Shown one piece after another: positions 54,831 to 60,320 of a stretch of DNA of 60,570 nucleotides (the first letter of the stretch is position 1; every line of letters starts with the position of its first letter). Made by a program: the position numbers and the translations under genes. Origin of the DNA: an uncultured bacterium (lineage in GTDB: Bacteria; Bacillota; Clostridia; Lachnospirales; Lachnospiraceae); the NCBI GenBank assembly GCA_947381965.1, contig CANCXX010000028.1, positions 1 through 60,570 on the forward strand, in the 5' to 3' direction. Below the pieces are notes generated by a model. The model saw only the letters and a program-made list of their open reading frames with translations. It had not been told where the DNA came from and did not search any database.

Positions 54831-57059
54831 CTACTTATAAATTAATGCGTAAGCATAAAACTTATTTGTTTTTATTGTAATTGTTTCAGGGTTATTGTCT
54901 GAATCGTTATAAATAATCGGCTGCCCACCCTTTGTTACACAGATCATCTTATACTCTCTGTTTTCTTTGTAAATGTCTGACGGAATTTTTATAGTAACCT
55001 CTATTTCTTTATCCATACTGTATGTGTTATCAGATTGCGAGTAAATGTTATAAGTCCTTCCAATCGTATAATCCCCAAGAACCGCCTCAAAAGACTTAAA
55101 ACACATTGGTCCCTGCATTGCATTCTCTATAACAACCTGATAGGCGTTATCTTTTGATGGTGTGTACCAGACGGCTTCTCTCCCCACACAGGCATACCGT
55201 TTTCTCTCGTCAGGAGTTGTAGGTTTCCATGTTTCCACAACCGCTTTTATGCCTGAATTAATAATGGATGATGCTCCTTGGTTGCCCTCAGCGCTGTCGC
55301 TGTCAGTTTCCATATTACTGCTGACATTGTCACTTGAACTGCTGTCCGTAGGATTTCCACCGGATGTATTTCCAGCGTTATCCCCAGATTGATCCCCGCC
55401 GGGATTATTTCCGGTGTTATTATCGCCATCAGGATTGGGGGTTGGACGCGGAACAGGAATATAGTTATAATGTACCGTTGCAGTTGATGCCGTATCATCT
55501 ATTTTATTTATGCTGTTCCACTGCCCTTCGGTACCGGTAAAATATATATCTTTCACAAAACAATTTGAAAATGCGCCTGCCCCTATTGTCGTTACGCTGT
55601 CCGGGATTATAACAGTCGTCAGTCCAGGACAGGAAGCAAAAGCTGTTGCGCCAATGCTTTCCGCACCTTGTGGAATTTCCACTTCAGTTAACAGTTTACA
55701 ATTTACAAACATCCCCTCACCAATACAGTTTATATTTTGAGGCAGTGTTACACTCGTCAGCTCATAACATCGCGCAAATATACTGTTTCCCATCTTTACC
55801 TGTATGCCGCCTGAGGCAAACTCCGCACTTTTCATCTTCGTACATTCAAAAAAAGCCGCATCTCCCACCTCTCCAATACTGGCAGGCAGGGATATAGAAG
55901 TAAGATTTGTGCAGGCGCGGAAAACATTTTGTCCAATCGTTTCCACTCCTTCGCAGACAGCCACCGAACTAAGATTTTGACAGCCCTGAAACGCACTGTC
56001 ACCAATGGTTTTCACACTGGATGGAATCTCTGCACTAATAACCGGGCAATTCATAAAAGCGTTGTCTCCAATACTGGTAACGCCTTCTTCAATAACAACC
56101 TTCCGGACTTTACTGCCGCAAGCGCTCCATGGCTGATTTTCGGCACTGCCAAAATCCGGCATAGCCCCCTGACCGGAAATGGTCAGTGTACCCACATTCG
56201 TCAGGTTCCAGACAAGCCCTCCCTCAAGAGAGCCGTTTGCAAATGATTCATTTGCCCCTGGGTCATCCGGCGGAACATAGCCTTCCGGATAACGGGTAAT
56301 ATAATGGCTTGTTATGTTCATTACTTCATCCTTAGATATTACCCTCCCCCAGTGAACCTTCCCCTGGTGATCTCCCGTGCTGATGTTTCCTTCAGCAACG
56401 ACCACATACGCATCGCTTACTTCAAGTACTATTACGGTATGAGCGTCATTGTTTACCCGCAGAATATCTCCGACTTTTATATCTTCAAATGAAAACCCGT
56501 CTGCTGCATACATCCTGGCTTCTGAAGTACCAAATGCCGCATCACTAAGTTCAAATGCAAAAGCTACACAGCCAACAGCAGCAATGTTCACGCCGTCAAG
56601 AGGTCCGCCTTTCCAACGATAATATCCCTTTAAGTCTGAATAAGGCTCTTCATTGGTCCAGGTCGCTCCTTCTCTATACTTATCTTGCTCCTTCAAAGCG
56701 ATCATTGCCTCATACACTTCCGTTGGGTCCGAAAATGTACCATCACGTGTGACCCGTCCACCCTGAAGCGCTTGGGGCAGTACCTCCTTGGGCCGGGAAG
56801 GGGTTTTCTGCGGCGTTGGACTCACATTCACACTGGGAAGTACCTTAACAGGACTTTCTTGGGGCTGGGCTTCCTCCGGCTGCAACGGCGTTCCCTGGGG
56901 CAACGGACTTATGCTGTCATCTGACTCCTCCCCTACAGGGCTTTCTTTGGGCAATGCTTCCTCCGGCTGCAACGGCGTTTTTTGAAATGCGTATGCCGCT
57001 GAATGGGAAGAAATACATAAGCAAAACGCTAAAATAATTGGAAAAACTCGTTGTTTCAA
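54831..57059 (-). CDS. Secreted LRR (BspA-type) protein with NlpC/P60-like domain
   Basis: A 742-residue secreted protein. Signal peptide (1-24, ending AAYAF); three near repeats of a Pro/Glu-rich unit (TPLQPEEALPKESP, TPLQPEEAQPQESP, TPSRPKEVLPQA; residues about 27-95); a papain-fold NlpC/P60-like domain (about 105-265) with GCVAFAFELSD Cys, NDAHTVIVLEV His and AEGN polar residue; BspA-type leucine-rich repeats (about 285-510; IEEGVTSIGDNAFMNC-like units); a Gly/Asn/Ser-rich linker; and a C-terminal domain (about 600-742). No sortase or membrane anchor is seen. Probably wall-acting or host-contact protein. Confidence 0.88.
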   Translation of the reverse strand: MKQRVFPIILAFCLCISSHSAAYAFQKTPLQPEEALPKESPVGEESDDSISPLPQGTPLQPEEAQPQESPVKVLPSVNVSPTPQKTPSRPKEVLPQALQGGRVTRDGTFSDPTEVYEAMIALKEQDKYREGATWTNEEPYSDLKGYYRWKGGPLDGVNIAAVGCVAFAFELSDAAFGTSEARMYAADGFSFEDIKVGDILRVNNDAHTVIVLEVSDAYVVVAEGNISTGDHQGKVHWGRVISKDEVMNITSHYITRYPEGYVPPDDPGANESFANGSLEGGLVWNLTNVGTLTISGQGAMPDFGSAENQPWSACGSKVRKVVIEEGVTSIGDNAFMNCPVISAEIPSSVKTIGDSAFQGCQNLSSVAVCEGVETIGQNVFRACTNLTSISLPASIGEVGDAAFFECTKMKSAEFASGGIQVKMGNSIFARCYELTSVTLPQNINCIGEGMFVNCKLLTEVEIPQGAESIGATAFASCPGLTTVIIPDSVTTIGAGAFSNCFVKDIYFTGTEGQWNSINKIDDTASTATVHYNYIPVPRPTPNPDGDNNTGNNPGGDQSGDNAGNTSGGNPTDSSSSDNVSSNMETDSDSAEGNQGASSIINSGIKAVVETWKPTTPDERKRYACVGREAVWYTPSKDNAYQVVIENAMQGPMCFKSFEAVLGDYTIGRTYNIYSQSDNTYSMDKEIEVTIKIPSDIYKENREYKMICVTKGGQPIIYNDSDNNPETITIKTNKFYAYALIYK

Positions 57060-57415: not shown

Positions 57416-57730
57416 TTCTTCTCCGGGAATTAATATTACCTTTTTGATACCTTTCAGCTCTTTCATCGGGCAAACCACACTGGCTGCCACATCCCGGATA
57501 TACATCTGCAGGGTCTGCGTCCCATTACGATTCCAACACTTTTTATCCGCACCTTTGCATTAATGGGCTTATTTTCTGTCACCACATCTTCACTTAAATT
57601 GGCAGATGATAACTCAAAGTCCGTGTAACTAAGTCCATAACCAAAGGGGTAAAGCAGTTTATTTGGTATATCTATGTACCGCCACCGGGATCTGTCCTTT
57701 ATCCCGTCCAATGCCGGGCGTCCTAAAATA
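57412..57730 (-). pseudogene. GH3 beta-glucosidase C-terminal relic
   Basis: The minus strand reads RPALDGIKDRSRWRYID, NKLLYPFGYGLSYTDF and ENKPINAKVRIKSVG, then after a one-base shift NRNGTQTLQMYIRDVA and PMKELKGIKKVILIPGEEL, then stops where the miniature element starts. These are the fibronectin-III-like end of GH3 beta-glucosidases. The catalytic domains are absent. It has lost both ends, one against the pseudo-methyltransferase gene stop and one against copy IV. Confidence 0.85.
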
Positions 57731-57732
57731 AT

Positions 57733-59628
57733 TTATTTTTCCAAATGAATTAATAAGTCATCCAACATTGCGCCCAAAAAAGCCTCTGTAGGCTGCTCAT
57801 TCCGTTCTTTTATTTCCATCAACTCTAAAATATCCCTGTCGGATAAACAGAGAATCAACTTCCCGCTTTCTCGAAGACTTCCACGTACAGCGGCAAGGGC
57901 ATTTTCATCTGCTCCCTTCCTGGAAATTATAATCGCCACTCTCCGCAATGCCTTTTCATATAAATATTTTTCCGTTGTATATATTTCTTTTTGCGTGATT
58001 TTCTCGCTGTGGTTTTTAAATTCAAAAACGATATATTTCGTATTAAAATATTGTTGGACCGTATCGAAAAAATCCTGATTTGTCCCAGCCTTGATTTTAC
58101 AGCATAAATCAAATCTATACATTCCATTGTCTGTATTTTCCTGCGCATACCACAGGGTCAGATAATCTCCCAAAACATACTTTAATATTTCAATACAAAC
58201 CTTTTCATATTGCTGCCACTGCTCTGTTCCGGGTTTAATCTTCAATAATTTTTCTTTCAGGCTCTCATCTTCCGTCCTTCTCTCTATTTCGTCAAAGATA
58301 TATGGTTCAGGTTTTTGCGGTTCGATTACTTCTGTTGAATAGTTCAAAAAGGCAACAAACTCATTTTCAATTCTTGTAAATTCTCTGAACAACCAAAGAA
58401 GATTTCCTGCATCCCATATATTAATTCCATACTCAGATTTACATAATTCTTTTACTTCCTCAGATACTATATTTGCTACCACAAGAACGATACAGTCACC
58501 TTCTTTTTTTCCTTTTGATAATCTCTCACTTGCTTTACACAAATTCTCTCTCATTGAAAAATTACTGCTATAAAATTTCAAAGCAAAATACACTGTGGAA
58601 TCTTTATATGTATAAACAATATCCAATTCCATATCCTGTTCCGTGGAATTCTTTATTTCTCCGCCTTTTTGCTGCAGATAACTGCTAAATATCTGTTCAA
58701 ACTCCCTATAGTCTGCTATCTGTTGTTTACGCAGAGGCGTTTGTGTAAGATGATCTGCAGTATACTTTACGACCTGCACATTCGGTGCATATACCAGCAT
58801 CCTGTACAACCATGCCCTATTCGCTCTATTCATGTCATAATTTTTCGGAAATCCTTTCAATACTGCCATTTCTTTGTGTGATAGCCTATGAATAATTCCA
58901 TCGACTCGAACCAACGGAATTTTTATTAAATTCCACCCCACATATGGCTGTTCTATATATTTGTCTTTCCTCCAACAAAGAAAACTATCCTCTTTGCTCT
59001 CTTCTGAAATTTCATCCCTGTTAATCCTATAGTACCATCCGTCTTCTTCCATGTCGGAAATGAACTTACAAACTGGAATCGTTATTCCCAAATCCCTATA
59101 TCCCGGAAATTCATACTGATAATCTGGTATTATGCTTCCAATCGCATAGAGGTGCTCCTCTCTCACCGGGAATCCGGTAATCTCCCTACTGCTCAGAACC
59201 CTCCAGGTAATATTATAACCTGTCTGACATATTTCATCGCAAAATCCTGACCACATCGGGTTTTTATACATTCCTTTTTGCATAACCAGAAAAAACATGT
59301 GCGGTCTTTTCCACTTTATAATCTCCGCAGTCTTTTTCAAAGGTGTTTCATTAAACCCATGCGGTTCAAATTCACTTTTTCCACTGTTTTTAGATGTAAA
59401 CGCCTGCATCAAATCAATTGCTATTACATCTACATCTGAAATTTCTTCCGGCATAAGTTCCATCAAACCTCTTTCGCATATTTTTCCTCCAATATTCTTC
59501 CTGTGAATTTCTATCGCTTTCCTGTCTTTTACAAAAATCTCTTTTATCTGAAAACCGGCTTCCACAAATCCCAAAGACATTGCTCCAATTCCTGCCTCTA
59601 TAATCGCGACCGTATTGTTCAAAATCAT
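57733..59628 (-). CDS. Pseudo-C5-cytosine methyltransferase fused to two nuclease-fold domains
   Basis: A 631-residue protein. Residues 1-300 keep C5-methyltransferase landmarks: motif I-like EAGIGAMSLGFVEAGF (11-26), motif VIII-like GFPVREEHLYAIGSI (152-166), motif IX-like HRLSHKEMAVLKGFPKNYD (247-265) and motif X-like PNVQVVKYTADHL (282-294). The catalytic parts are gone: GGPPCQ is IAIDLMQAF (69-77) and ENV is LVMQKG (114-119). Residues 305-420 look Mrr-like (LDIVYTY, FALKFY), partly degenerate. Residues 470-605 form a PD-(D/E)xK domain: FDLCCKI Asp (507), VFEFKNH Glu536/Lys538. AGGAGGTGA abuts ATG 59628; a TTG two codons later has better spacing. Possibly antiviral; function inferred. Confidence 0.75.
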   Translation of the reverse strand: MILNNTVAIIEAGIGAMSLGFVEAGFQIKEIFVKDRKAIEIHRKNIGGKICERGLMELMPEEISDVDVIAIDLMQAFTSKNSGKSEFEPHGFNETPLKKTAEIIKWKRPHMFFLVMQKGMYKNPMWSGFCDEICQTGYNITWRVLSSREITGFPVREEHLYAIGSIIPDYQYEFPGYRDLGITIPVCKFISDMEEDGWYYRINRDEISEESKEDSFLCWRKDKYIEQPYVGWNLIKIPLVRVDGIIHRLSHKEMAVLKGFPKNYDMNRANRAWLYRMLVYAPNVQVVKYTADHLTQTPLRKQQIADYREFEQIFSSYLQQKGGEIKNSTEQDMELDIVYTYKDSTVYFALKFYSSNFSMRENLCKASERLSKGKKEGDCIVLVVANIVSEEVKELCKSEYGINIWDAGNLLWLFREFTRIENEFVAFLNYSTEVIEPQKPEPYIFDEIERRTEDESLKEKLLKIKPGTEQWQQYEKVCIEILKYVLGDYLTLWYAQENTDNGMYRFDLCCKIKAGTNQDFFDTVQQYFNTKYIVFEFKNHSEKITQKEIYTTEKYLYEKALRRVAIIISRKGADENALAAVRGSLRESGKLILCLSDRDILELMEIKERNEQPTEAFLGAMLDDLLIHLEK

Positions 59629-59753: not shown

Positions 59754-60135
59754 CTACATACAATAAGTCTCTACTAATTCCACAATCTCCTGATTAGTCG
59801 GTATTCTGTTATCATCCTTTTTATAATAAATCGTAAGCAGATACACTTCCGCATCATCCCTGACTGCATAATAAATAATCCGATACCCGTTGGACTGCCC
59901 TGCCTTGGTATCTGTATTTGCTGACCTGACTTTGAAAGTATGCCCATCTGTCGGAATCCTTAATCCCGGAATTTCCGTTCCTATCAGGTTTCCTTTTTTC
60001 TAATTCATCAGTTATTGCTTTAATATCCGCACCTATATGCGTGAATCCTTTTTTCTTGATGTAATATTACACATCTTTTTCGAACTGTTCAGTAGGTATA
60101 ACTGTTACATTTATCTTTCTTCCTCTTTGCTCCAT
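59754..60135 (-). pseudogene. RelE-family toxin, broken by a stop and a frameshift
   Basis: From ATG 60135 (MEQRGRKINVTVIPTEQF) the frame hits TAA after EKDV, continues YYIKKKGFTHIGADIKAITDELEK, then shifts at an A-run (gaaaaaagg, about 59998-60004) and resumes GNLIGTEIPGLRIPTDGHTFKVR...NGYRIIYYAVRDDAEVYLLTIYYKKDD...VELVETYCM. The GYRIIYYAV and LLTIYYKKDD strands are RelE-family. The start overlaps the antitoxin gene by 25 bases, the standard order. The two lesions make an inactive toxin. Confidence 0.85.
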
Positions 60136-60320
60136 TTTTCAATATTCGCAAATAAATCATTTAAGGAATGCTTGGGAGTTTTGCCTTCACGCATATTCTT
60201 TACTTCCTTGCATGACTGCATAATAGATTCTGAAATTGTACAAGGTCTTTCCAAATTTGCATCTACGCTCATTACTTGTTCCACTTCCACTACTTTATTT
60301 TTTCCTGCTTTCTTACACAT
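60111..60320 (-). CDS. Antitoxin of the broken RelE pair
   Basis: A 69-residue protein: MCKKAGKNKVVEVEQVMSVD at the start, SESIMQSCKEVKNMREGK in the middle and SLNDLFANIEKWSKEEER at the end, an acidic toxin-binding tail. AAAGGTGG lies six bases before ATG 60320. It has no lesion, so it survives as an orphan or still represses its promoter. A dyad flanks the promoter. Confidence 0.78.
   Translation of the reverse strand: MCKKAGKNKVVEVEQVMSVDANLERPCTISESIMQSCKEVKNMREGKTPKHSLNDLFANIEKWSKEEER

What the first reader, a model, noticed from the sequence alone, without database searches (positions are those of the whole stretch)
57733..59628. Dead cytosine methyltransferase fused to two nuclease-fold domains
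Seen: C5-methyltransferase landmarks I, VIII, IX and X in order over 300 residues, but the catalytic PCQ and ENV motifs replaced (IAIDLMQAF, LVMQKG). Then an Mrr-like segment (LDIVYTY..FALKFY) and a PD-(D/E)xK segment with D507, E536, K538. Family knowledge: restriction enzymes sometimes fuse active methyltransferase and nuclease, but an inactive methyltransferase fold would more likely read DNA or a target-base state than modify it. It sits among broken toxin, GH3 and element remnants, an accessory setting. Inference: a single-protein defence nuclease using the pseudo-methyltransferase as sensor.
Basis: partly seen in the sequence, partly recalled or inferred. Interest (0 to 1): 0.88.

Follow-up and report, generated by a model that had tools for sequence, protein, structure and literature searches.

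The report
Dead methylase fused to defence nuclease
A gut bacterium's mobile gene joins a disabled DNA-methylating enzyme to a conserved nuclease whose relatives often sit beside antiviral genes; evolution has kept the disabled part, probably as a sensor or bait rather than as an enzyme.

Summary
Window 57733-59628(-) encodes 631 aa: a C5-cytosine methyltransferase fold without its catalytic residues, an Mrr-like PD-(D/E)xK domain, and a second PD-(D/E)xK domain with D507/E536/K538. The inactivation is inherited: pseudo-methylases in six genomes lack the catalytic Cys, and the five put in a tree form one clade (100/99). In two of them the dead domain sits on another candidate effector (PADLOC PDC-M59A with PDC-M59B beside it, tested in one). 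The C-terminal module is a family of its own (phrog_31260). It stands alone in prophages and plasmids, or carries TIR, half-helicase or pseudo-methylase N-termini; D/E/K is kept in 19 of 19 members compared. Neighbours of some relatives are Septu, Lamassu LmuC and TIR genes.

The former target-recognition region is acidic and the former catalytic loop evolves fast, which favours a protein-sensing or bait role over DNA reading. Ten nearby window ORFs show no convincing defence gene.

dN/dS is 0.21, so the protein is maintained. New variant of a known kind: a defence nuclease with exchangeable N-termini. Nuclease activity, defence and sensing are inferred.

The parts
57733..59628 (-). whole gene: pseudo-C5-methyltransferase + Mrr-like + C-terminal PD-(D/E)xK nuclease, 631 aa
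   Evidence: ORF; PF00145 and sub-threshold PF04471; phrog_31260 E 1.7e-63, best stretch residues 452-631
58729..59628 (-). residues 1-300, catalytically dead C5-methyltransferase domain
   Evidence: PF00145, motif table, AF2 pTM 0.85, Foldseek M.HhaI E 9.5e-16
59329..59424 (-). residues 69-100, former motif IV-V catalytic loop; Cys replaced by Met; fast evolving (dN/dS 1.32, window vs L187)
   Evidence: residues 81-90 have pLDDT below 50
59272..59289 (-). residues 114-119, motif VI ENV replaced by VMQ
59155..59175 (-). residues 152-158, motif VIII QxRxR replaced by VREEH (first Arg is Glu in the five pseudo-methylases aligned)
58894..59133 (-). residues 166-245, former target-recognition region; acidic; dN/dS 0.20 against L187, 1.57 (6 N, 1 S changes) against L003
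58333..58728 (-). residues 301-432, Mrr-like PD-(D/E)xK domain, degenerate (D336, A349, K351)
   Evidence: PF04471 20 bits, cut-off 21; residue table
57736..58332 (-). residues 433-631, C-terminal PD-(D/E)xK nuclease domain, strongest purifying selection (dN/dS 0.06-0.08)
58108..58110 (-). codon of D507, predicted metal ligand
   Evidence: kept in 19 of 19 members
58015..58023 (-). codons of E536-F537-K538 (ExK)
   Evidence: E and K kept in 19 of 19 members
59754..60320 (-). upstream: 69-aa ORF and the broken copy of a 118-aa toxin-like ORF that is intact in L003; part of the same conserved block
   Evidence: the L003 ORFs have no Pfam hit
57721..57735 (-). 3' edge of the shared block: similarity to L003 ends 12 bp after the stop codon and to L187 9 bp after it

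Best explanation
The gene encodes a mobile, single-protein candidate anti-phage effector. Its working part is the C-terminal PD-(D/E)xK nuclease. The N-terminal domain descends from a C5-cytosine methyltransferase that can no longer methylate and acts as a non-enzymatic switch holding or releasing the nuclease. In this lineage the middle Mrr-like domain has lost its catalytic acid and probably serves as a linker or binding domain. What the switch senses is not shown. A protein (a phage methyltransferase, anti-restriction factor or other phage product that engages methyltransferase folds) is my first guess; DNA is second. Shown by computation: fold, loss of catalytic and cofactor residues, shared ancestry of the dead domain on two different effectors, purifying selection, nuclease residue conservation, defence-gene neighbours of some relatives. 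Inferred: nuclease activity, defence role, sensing and its ligand.
For: Dead domain conserved: of 61 distinct ORFs matching the pseudo-methylase profile in loci L001-L091, 5 full-length pseudo-methylases lack PCQ and ENV, 54 have both, 1 has PCV+ENV (L085), 1 is a C-terminal fragment (recount 118). One clade, 100/99, in 58 rows. Shared derived residues: Glu for the first Arg of VIII, LKG for LQG in IX. In L040 the domain sits on PDC-M59A (E 1e-102) beside PDC-M59B (E 3.5e-40). Module also occurs alone, with TIR, or with a half-helicase. D/E/K in 19 of 19. dN/dS against L187: 0.21 overall, C-term 0.08, dead domain 0.31. Loop 1.32 (16 N, 3 S) against 16 N/35 S pooled in 5 true pairs, Fisher P 1e-4. 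Of 14 hand-picked neighbour proteins of relatives, 8 match PADLOC profiles: Septu PtuA and PtuB, LmuC, ThsB-like TIR, TIR effector, PD-Lambda-2_B, PDC-M59B, weak Avs4.
Against: No activity or phage test exists. Six of the 14 neighbour proteins scanned matched nothing, and 10 window ORFs show no convincing defence gene. PADLOC names only methyltransferases in this protein at E<=1. Full-length relatives are few: L003 (found again as L186), L187 and L039; L004 and L188 are contig-edge fragments. The loop result rests on one pair of sequences. Against L003 the target-recognition region has dN/dS 1.57 (6 N, 1 S), unlike the 0.20 against L187. Net charge is a crude proxy for DNA binding. AF2 of the C-terminus used 8 sequences (pTM 0.53), and Foldseek gave one hit below 1e-3 (MspJI, TM 0.25).
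Confidence: 0.6

Rival explanations
1. The dead methyltransferase still binds DNA through its target-recognition region and delivers the nuclease to a sequence or modification state (a type IV-like or specificity-subunit role).
For: The VIII-IX region has dN/dS 0.20 against L187, within the 0.15-0.78 of true pairs, and near-normal length (82 residues; median 95.5, range 63-118 in 36 true enzymes). Foldseek aligns the model with M.HhaI over 328 columns, gaps included.
Against: The VIII-IX region has net charge -6 (window), -4, -7, -2, -8 against a median of +2 (range -5 to 13) in 36 true enzymes. The loop that in M.HhaI closes on DNA (recalled) is fast evolving and of low pLDDT. Gln and the first Arg of motif VIII and GNSV of motif X are gone.
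Confidence: 0.25
2. The domain senses S-adenosylmethionine (for example its depletion by phage SAM-degrading enzymes) and licenses the nuclease.
For: GxG of motif I is kept in the five aligned; acidic residues at motifs II and III are kept in siblings L039, L009 and L040.
Against: In the window and L003 both acidic residues are lost (V and G), the motif I Phe is Glu, and motif X is lost, so the pocket is unlikely to bind SAM here.
Confidence: 0.1
3. A decaying or selfish gene without present function.
For: Upstream toxin-like ORF is broken in the window; the Mrr-like active site is lost.
Against: Intact ORF in window, L003, L187 and L039; dN/dS 0.26 (L003) and 0.21 (L187), C-term 0.06-0.08.
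Confidence: 0.06
4. It is a fused restriction-modification enzyme or half of a two-subunit methyltransferase needing a partner.
For: Fusion of methylase and nuclease is known in restriction enzymes (recalled).
Against: The catalytic methylase residues are lost. A profile of 36 true methylases finds no second methylase in the window, L003, L172 (around L039), L173 (around L040), L177 (around L009) or L187. The genome's only other PF00145 match at E<=0.001 lies on another contig.
Confidence: 0.05

Closest known systems
phrog_31260 (phage protein family of unknown function; Mrr-like + C-terminal PD-(D/E)xK)
   Same: the window's C-terminal region belongs to it (E 1.7e-63)
   Different: the viral-contig members seen here (L068-L073, 337-366 aa) have no methyltransferase N-terminus; the window lineage has lost the Mrr acid
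PADLOC PDC-M36A and PDC-M59A/B (candidate defence proteins)
   Same: sister proteins match PDC-M36A over the last domain (L039, L007, L068 and others); pseudo-methylase sister L040 matches PDC-M59A with PDC-M59B next
   Different: the window protein itself gave no PDC-M36A match at E<=1; the PDC-M59A profile (338 positions) aligns only to L040 residues 294-631, and a 52.8% relative of that part in Ilyobacter has no methylase part and follows type III R-M genes
Shedu nucleases with variable N-terminal sensory modules
   Same: same logic: a PD-(D/E)xK core with exchangeable N-termini (seen as a passage and a reference title in PMC12839542; the Shedu paper is not held)
   Different: no Pfam match to the Shedu nuclease domain (DUF4263, name recalled) in the window at E<=1; the N-terminus here is a dead methylase
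PrrC/EcoprrI, Ronin and PARIS (guards sensing anti-restriction proteins)
   Same: a toxin or nuclease released when an anti-restriction protein is sensed; in Ronin the modification subunits are proposed as the sensor (passages read in PMC12409349)
   Different: those are multi-protein systems; here one protein carries a catalytically dead methylase, and sensing is untested

Membership tests
C5-cytosine DNA methyltransferase (PF00145), as homologue | sequence and fold similarity | tested here: met
   PF00145 over cut-off; Foldseek M.HhaI (model built with true methylases in the alignment)
C5-cytosine DNA methyltransferase, as enzyme | catalytic Cys in PCQ, ENV, QxRxR | tested here: not met
   LMQ, VMQ, VREEH
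C5-cytosine DNA methyltransferase, as enzyme | SAM-binding residues of motifs I, II, III, X | tested here: not met
   GxG kept; motif II acid, motif III Asp and GNSV lost in window and L003
Mrr-like nuclease (PF04471) | profile match | tested here: inconclusive
   20 bits against cut-off 21 in this copy, no match at E<=0.01 in L187; over the cut-off in L039, L006, L182
Mrr-like nuclease, active | D...(E/Q)xK | tested here: not met
   A349 in window, L003, L187; Q in L039
phrog_31260 / module nuclease | profile match and conserved D, ExK | tested here: met
   E 1.7e-63; 19 of 19
Shedu | SduA nuclease domain (DUF4263, recalled) | tested here: not met
   no such Pfam family at E<=1 in the window protein
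PDC-M36 | PADLOC profile match | tested here: inconclusive
   no match for the window at E<=1, match for L039 E 4.6e-11
anti-phage defence system | defence-gene neighbourhood | tested here: inconclusive
   8 of 14 hand-picked neighbour proteins of relatives match PADLOC; 10 window ORFs give nothing convincing
anti-phage defence system | protection against phage | not testable with these tools
   needs a bench test

The most novel reading that the evidence does not exclude
The dead methyltransferase is an integrated decoy, like decoy domains built into plant immune receptors: an imitation of a host methylase kept as bait for phage proteins that bind or disable methyltransferases, and used as a module on unrelated effectors (a PD-(D/E)xK nuclease, and the PDC-M59A protein with its Doc-like partner). 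Touching the bait would release the effector.
Probability: 0.35. Interest if true: 0.87.

Novelty: new variant of a known kind. Interest (0 to 1): 0.66.

Why it matters
DNA methyltransferases are central to restriction-modification, and phages carry proteins against it. A methyltransferase domain that evolution has kept after removing its chemistry, and that sits on two different candidate effectors, would show that the modification enzyme itself can become a sensor or bait. It gives a compact one-gene candidate in which ligand, switch and nuclease can be tested separately, and it links two unexplained candidate defence families (PDC-M36A-like and PDC-M59) through one shared domain.

Tried and rejected
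Recently mutated methylase: rejected, the losses are shared by the top-scoring relatives down to 23-28% identity over the domain and by an 84% copy. Pseudogene: rejected by dN/dS. SAM sensor for this lineage: disfavoured. Conserved operon partner: none seen in the ORF lists; upstream is a toxin-like ORF in window and L003 and a RecD2-like helicase in L039 (names recalled). One combined structure alignment (A8) misaligned the methylase C-termini, so I split the protein in two (A9, A10). Full-length relatives in viral contigs: none (235 pattern matches, no relative). The L040 protein in viral contigs: none. Literature: ten searches; judged by titles and abstract starts, nothing listed describes this architecture; others returned no paper. 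The library holds open-licence PMC papers only. I read passages of four papers, none in full. The RhuM name for the L009/L040 C-terminus is recalled; Pfam gave no such hit. Not in the 19-member table (ORFs of at least 150 aa, one row per near-identical C-terminus): L071 (near copy of L070), L183 and L184 (stop inside the match), split L027/L035, and Mrr-only matches. Corrected on re-check: Septu lies 1.2 kb, two phage genes, from the nuclease in L070, not in the same slot; LmuC is the direct neighbour in L023; a window PADLOC scan and a second-methylase scan were added.

Full report
What is there. The ORF at 57733-59628 (minus strand, ATG start, 631 aa) is intact. Pfam gives C-5 cytosine methylase (PF00145, E 1.1e-9, best stretch 12-150) and, just under its cut-off, Mrr_cat (residues 306-411, 20 bits against 21). 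PHROGs gives phrog_31260, an unnamed phage family of 365 positions, best stretch residues 452-631 (E 1.7e-63). PADLOC at E<=1 sees only methylases in this copy. AlphaFold2 of residues 1-305 gave pTM 0.85, mean pLDDT 81.6, and Foldseek's best hits were M.HhaI chains (E 9.5e-16, TM 0.73). The alignment used held 32 true methylases from viral contigs, which pushes the model to that fold, so the independent evidence is the Pfam match. Residues 300-631 gave pLDDT 82 but pTM 0.53 with 8 sequences; Foldseek's best was the MspJI restriction enzyme (E 3.9e-4, TM 0.25), followed by weaker hits that include Avs4, RPB5, HindIII, AF1548 and Card1. This fits PD-(D/E)xK-type domains but is weak on its own.

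The methylase is dead, and has long been so. Against 36 true enzymes, the window has LMQ for PCQ (Cys to Met), VMQ for ENV, VREEH for QxRxR, LKG for LQG, and no GNSV. GxG of motif I stays, but the motif II acid and motif III Asp are gone and the motif I Phe is Glu, so SAM binding is unlikely in this lineage. L039 (54% identical over the whole length), L009 and L040 also lack the Cys, the ENV Asn, the first Arg of motif VIII (Glu in each) and GNSV, but keep acids at motifs II and III. A search of 397 genomes of the family with the pseudo-methylase alignment A2 (built from window, L003 and L009) gave matches in 132, with a gap between four places (window, G147, G597, G661; E <= 1.9e-47) and the rest (E >= 1.7e-26). 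In loci L001-L091, 61 distinct ORFs matched the five-row profile: 5 full-length pseudo-methylases without PCQ and ENV, 54 with both, one with PCV and ENV, and one C-terminal fragment (recounted). Only fetched loci were examined, not every match. In a tree of 58 proteins the five pseudo-methylases form one group (100/99). Long branches could help them group, but the shared Glu in VIII and LKG in IX argue for common descent. The 84% copy L187, found later, has the same losses.

One dead domain, two effectors. In the window, L003 (Lachnospiraceae bacterium IMSAGC_005, 97%), L187 (same genus, 84%) and L039, the domain precedes the Mrr-like and C-terminal nuclease domains. In L009 and L040 it precedes a different C-terminal half. 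In L040 this half is PADLOC PDC-M59A (E 1e-102, residues 294-631), followed by a gene matching PDC-M59B (E 3.5e-40). L009 was not scanned with PADLOC; its next gene matches Pfam Fic. A 52.8% relative of the L040 half in Ilyobacter stands without a methylase part, directly after type III restriction-modification genes and before a Doc toxin gene. So the dead methylase seems to have been added to two different ready-made effectors, or exchanged between them.

The nuclease module. Nineteen distinct members were compared (those not in the table are listed under Tried and rejected). All 19 keep D507, E536 and K538 equivalents. The Mrr-like site reads ExK in 13, QxK in one (L039), DxK in one, AxK in three (window, L003, L187), and is not recognisable in one (L028). 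So in this lineage the middle domain is probably not a working nuclease. N-termini vary: none, judged by length, in viral-contig proteins (L068-L073), plasmid proteins (L020-L023) and L025; TIR in L182 (over the Pfam cut-off) and L006 (under it); a type I/III restriction half-helicase in L007 and L026. In three P2-like contigs (L069, L070, L072) it lies between similar flanking ORFs, named for L070 as tail-completion (phrog_26) and baseplate (phrog_9992) genes; L071 shows the upstream flank and then ends (P2-like is my reading). In L070 a Septu PtuA/PtuB pair lies 1.2 kb upstream, two phage genes away; L071 has the same ORFs.

Neighbours. I scanned 14 hand-picked neighbour proteins of relatives with PADLOC. 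Eight matched: PtuA and PtuB in L070; LmuC of Lamassu directly beside the Rhizobium ruizarguesonis copy (E 2.5e-71); a ThsB-like TIR gene directly before the R. etli copy (E 1.4e-16); a TIR effector-like gene beside L006 (E 3.9e-8); a PD-Lambda-2_B-like gene beside L007 (E 1.9e-43); PDC-M59B after L040; and a weak Avs4 match 7 kb from the L003 copy (E 4.7e-6). Six matched nothing: the L003 toxin-like ORF, and one or two neighbours each in L175, L176, L020 and L073. In the window, 10 ORFs between 39209 and 57711 gave two matches, a beta-galactosidase-like part of a CARF fusion profile and a marginal RexB (E 8.5e-4), neither convincing. The phylum search found the module alignment in 11 of 398 genomes at E <= 0.001, several by the Mrr part only; the family search with the last domain found 7 of 397 at E <= 1e-6, the window's genome included in both. 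It is rare and scattered.

Selection. Window against L187 (631 codons): dN/dS 0.21 overall; dead methylase 0.31; VIII-IX region 0.20; Mrr-like 0.23; C-terminal nuclease 0.08; former catalytic loop (69-100) 1.32, with 16 nonsynonymous and 3 synonymous changes. A scan of every 32-codon stretch puts the highest N/S ratios of the protein there. Window against L003, with few changes (17 S, 17 N), gives 0.26 overall and 0.06 for the C-terminus, but 1.57 for the VIII-IX region (6 N, 1 S), which does not fit a strongly constrained recognition region. In 7 pairs of true methylases the loop had dN/dS 0.00-0.31 and the VIII-IX region 0.15-0.78 in the six with changes. Pooling the loops of 5 non-overlapping pairs (16 N, 35 S) against the window-L187 loop gives Fisher P 1e-4; against the rest of the same domain P is 0.012. 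This is one pair of pseudo-methylases, so it shows relaxed or diversifying change but cannot tell which. Net charge of the VIII-IX region is -6, -4, -7, -2, -8 in window, L003, L039, L009, L040, against median +2 and range -5 to 13 in 36 true enzymes. A DNA-reading surface would not be expected to turn acidic.

Mobility. The block shared with L003 (96.8%) ends 12 bp, and that shared with L187 (86%) 9 bp, after the stop codon; the three copies then run into DNA that does not align. Upstream, the block includes a small ORF and a toxin-like ORF, intact in L003 and broken in the window. L003 carries a phage-integrase gene downstream (Pfam) and two more ORFs that read as integrases. In L039 the gene sits alone after a RecD2-like gene, with UvrB-like and ribosomal-protein genes further down (names recalled). 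No second methylase lies in the window, L003, L172, L173, L177 or L187 by a profile of true methylases.

How it most likely works. I take the C-terminal domain as the cutting part (conserved residues; activity inferred) and the dead methylase as its switch (inferred from conservation after loss of chemistry and from its presence on another effector). The ligand is open. Acidic recognition region, loose loop, and the place of the PDC-M59A relative after restriction-modification genes in Ilyobacter lean towards a protein ligand, possibly a phage anti-restriction protein or methylase. Known guards such as PrrC, Ronin and PARIS act on that principle (passages read in PMC12409349). Inactive REase domains in other defence systems have been proposed as sensors or as decoys for phage inhibitors (passages in PMC12839542), and RhuM-like/Doc fusions and restriction-linked loci were noted in PMC3710099 (passages). 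Nothing I read describes a dead C5-methylase in this role; the searches are listed under Tried and rejected.

Verdict. New variant of a known kind, interest 0.66.

Noticed in passing
L070:2944-7065 and L071:2942-7065: P2-like contigs with a Septu PtuA/PtuB pair (PADLOC, L070) and, 1.2 kb and two phage genes away, the module nuclease: two separate cargo sites in the tail-gene region.
   Followed up: partly
L040:1489-3846 and L009:2-2267: Pseudo-methylase fused to a different C-terminal half (PDC-M59A in L040) with a Fic/Doc gene abutting or overlapping downstream; a second candidate system with the same dead domain.
   Followed up: partly
L007:524-2089 and L175:2116-3544: Module nuclease with a half-helicase N-terminus whose Walker A and DEAH motifs look degenerate by eye, directly after a PD-Lambda-2_B-like gene and a small ORF.
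   Followed up: partly
L026:958-2523: N-terminal half of an SF2 helicase (no helicase C-terminal half) fused to the module nuclease; a possible second restriction-derived N-terminus.
   Followed up: no
L003:2-934: Start of an NTPase-like gene with a weak Avs4 match (E 4.7e-6), about 7 kb upstream of the IMSAGC_005 copy.
   Followed up: no
window 54831-57059: BspA-type leucine-rich repeat protein of 742 aa (PF13306, E 9.1e-56) close to the element edge.
   Followed up: no
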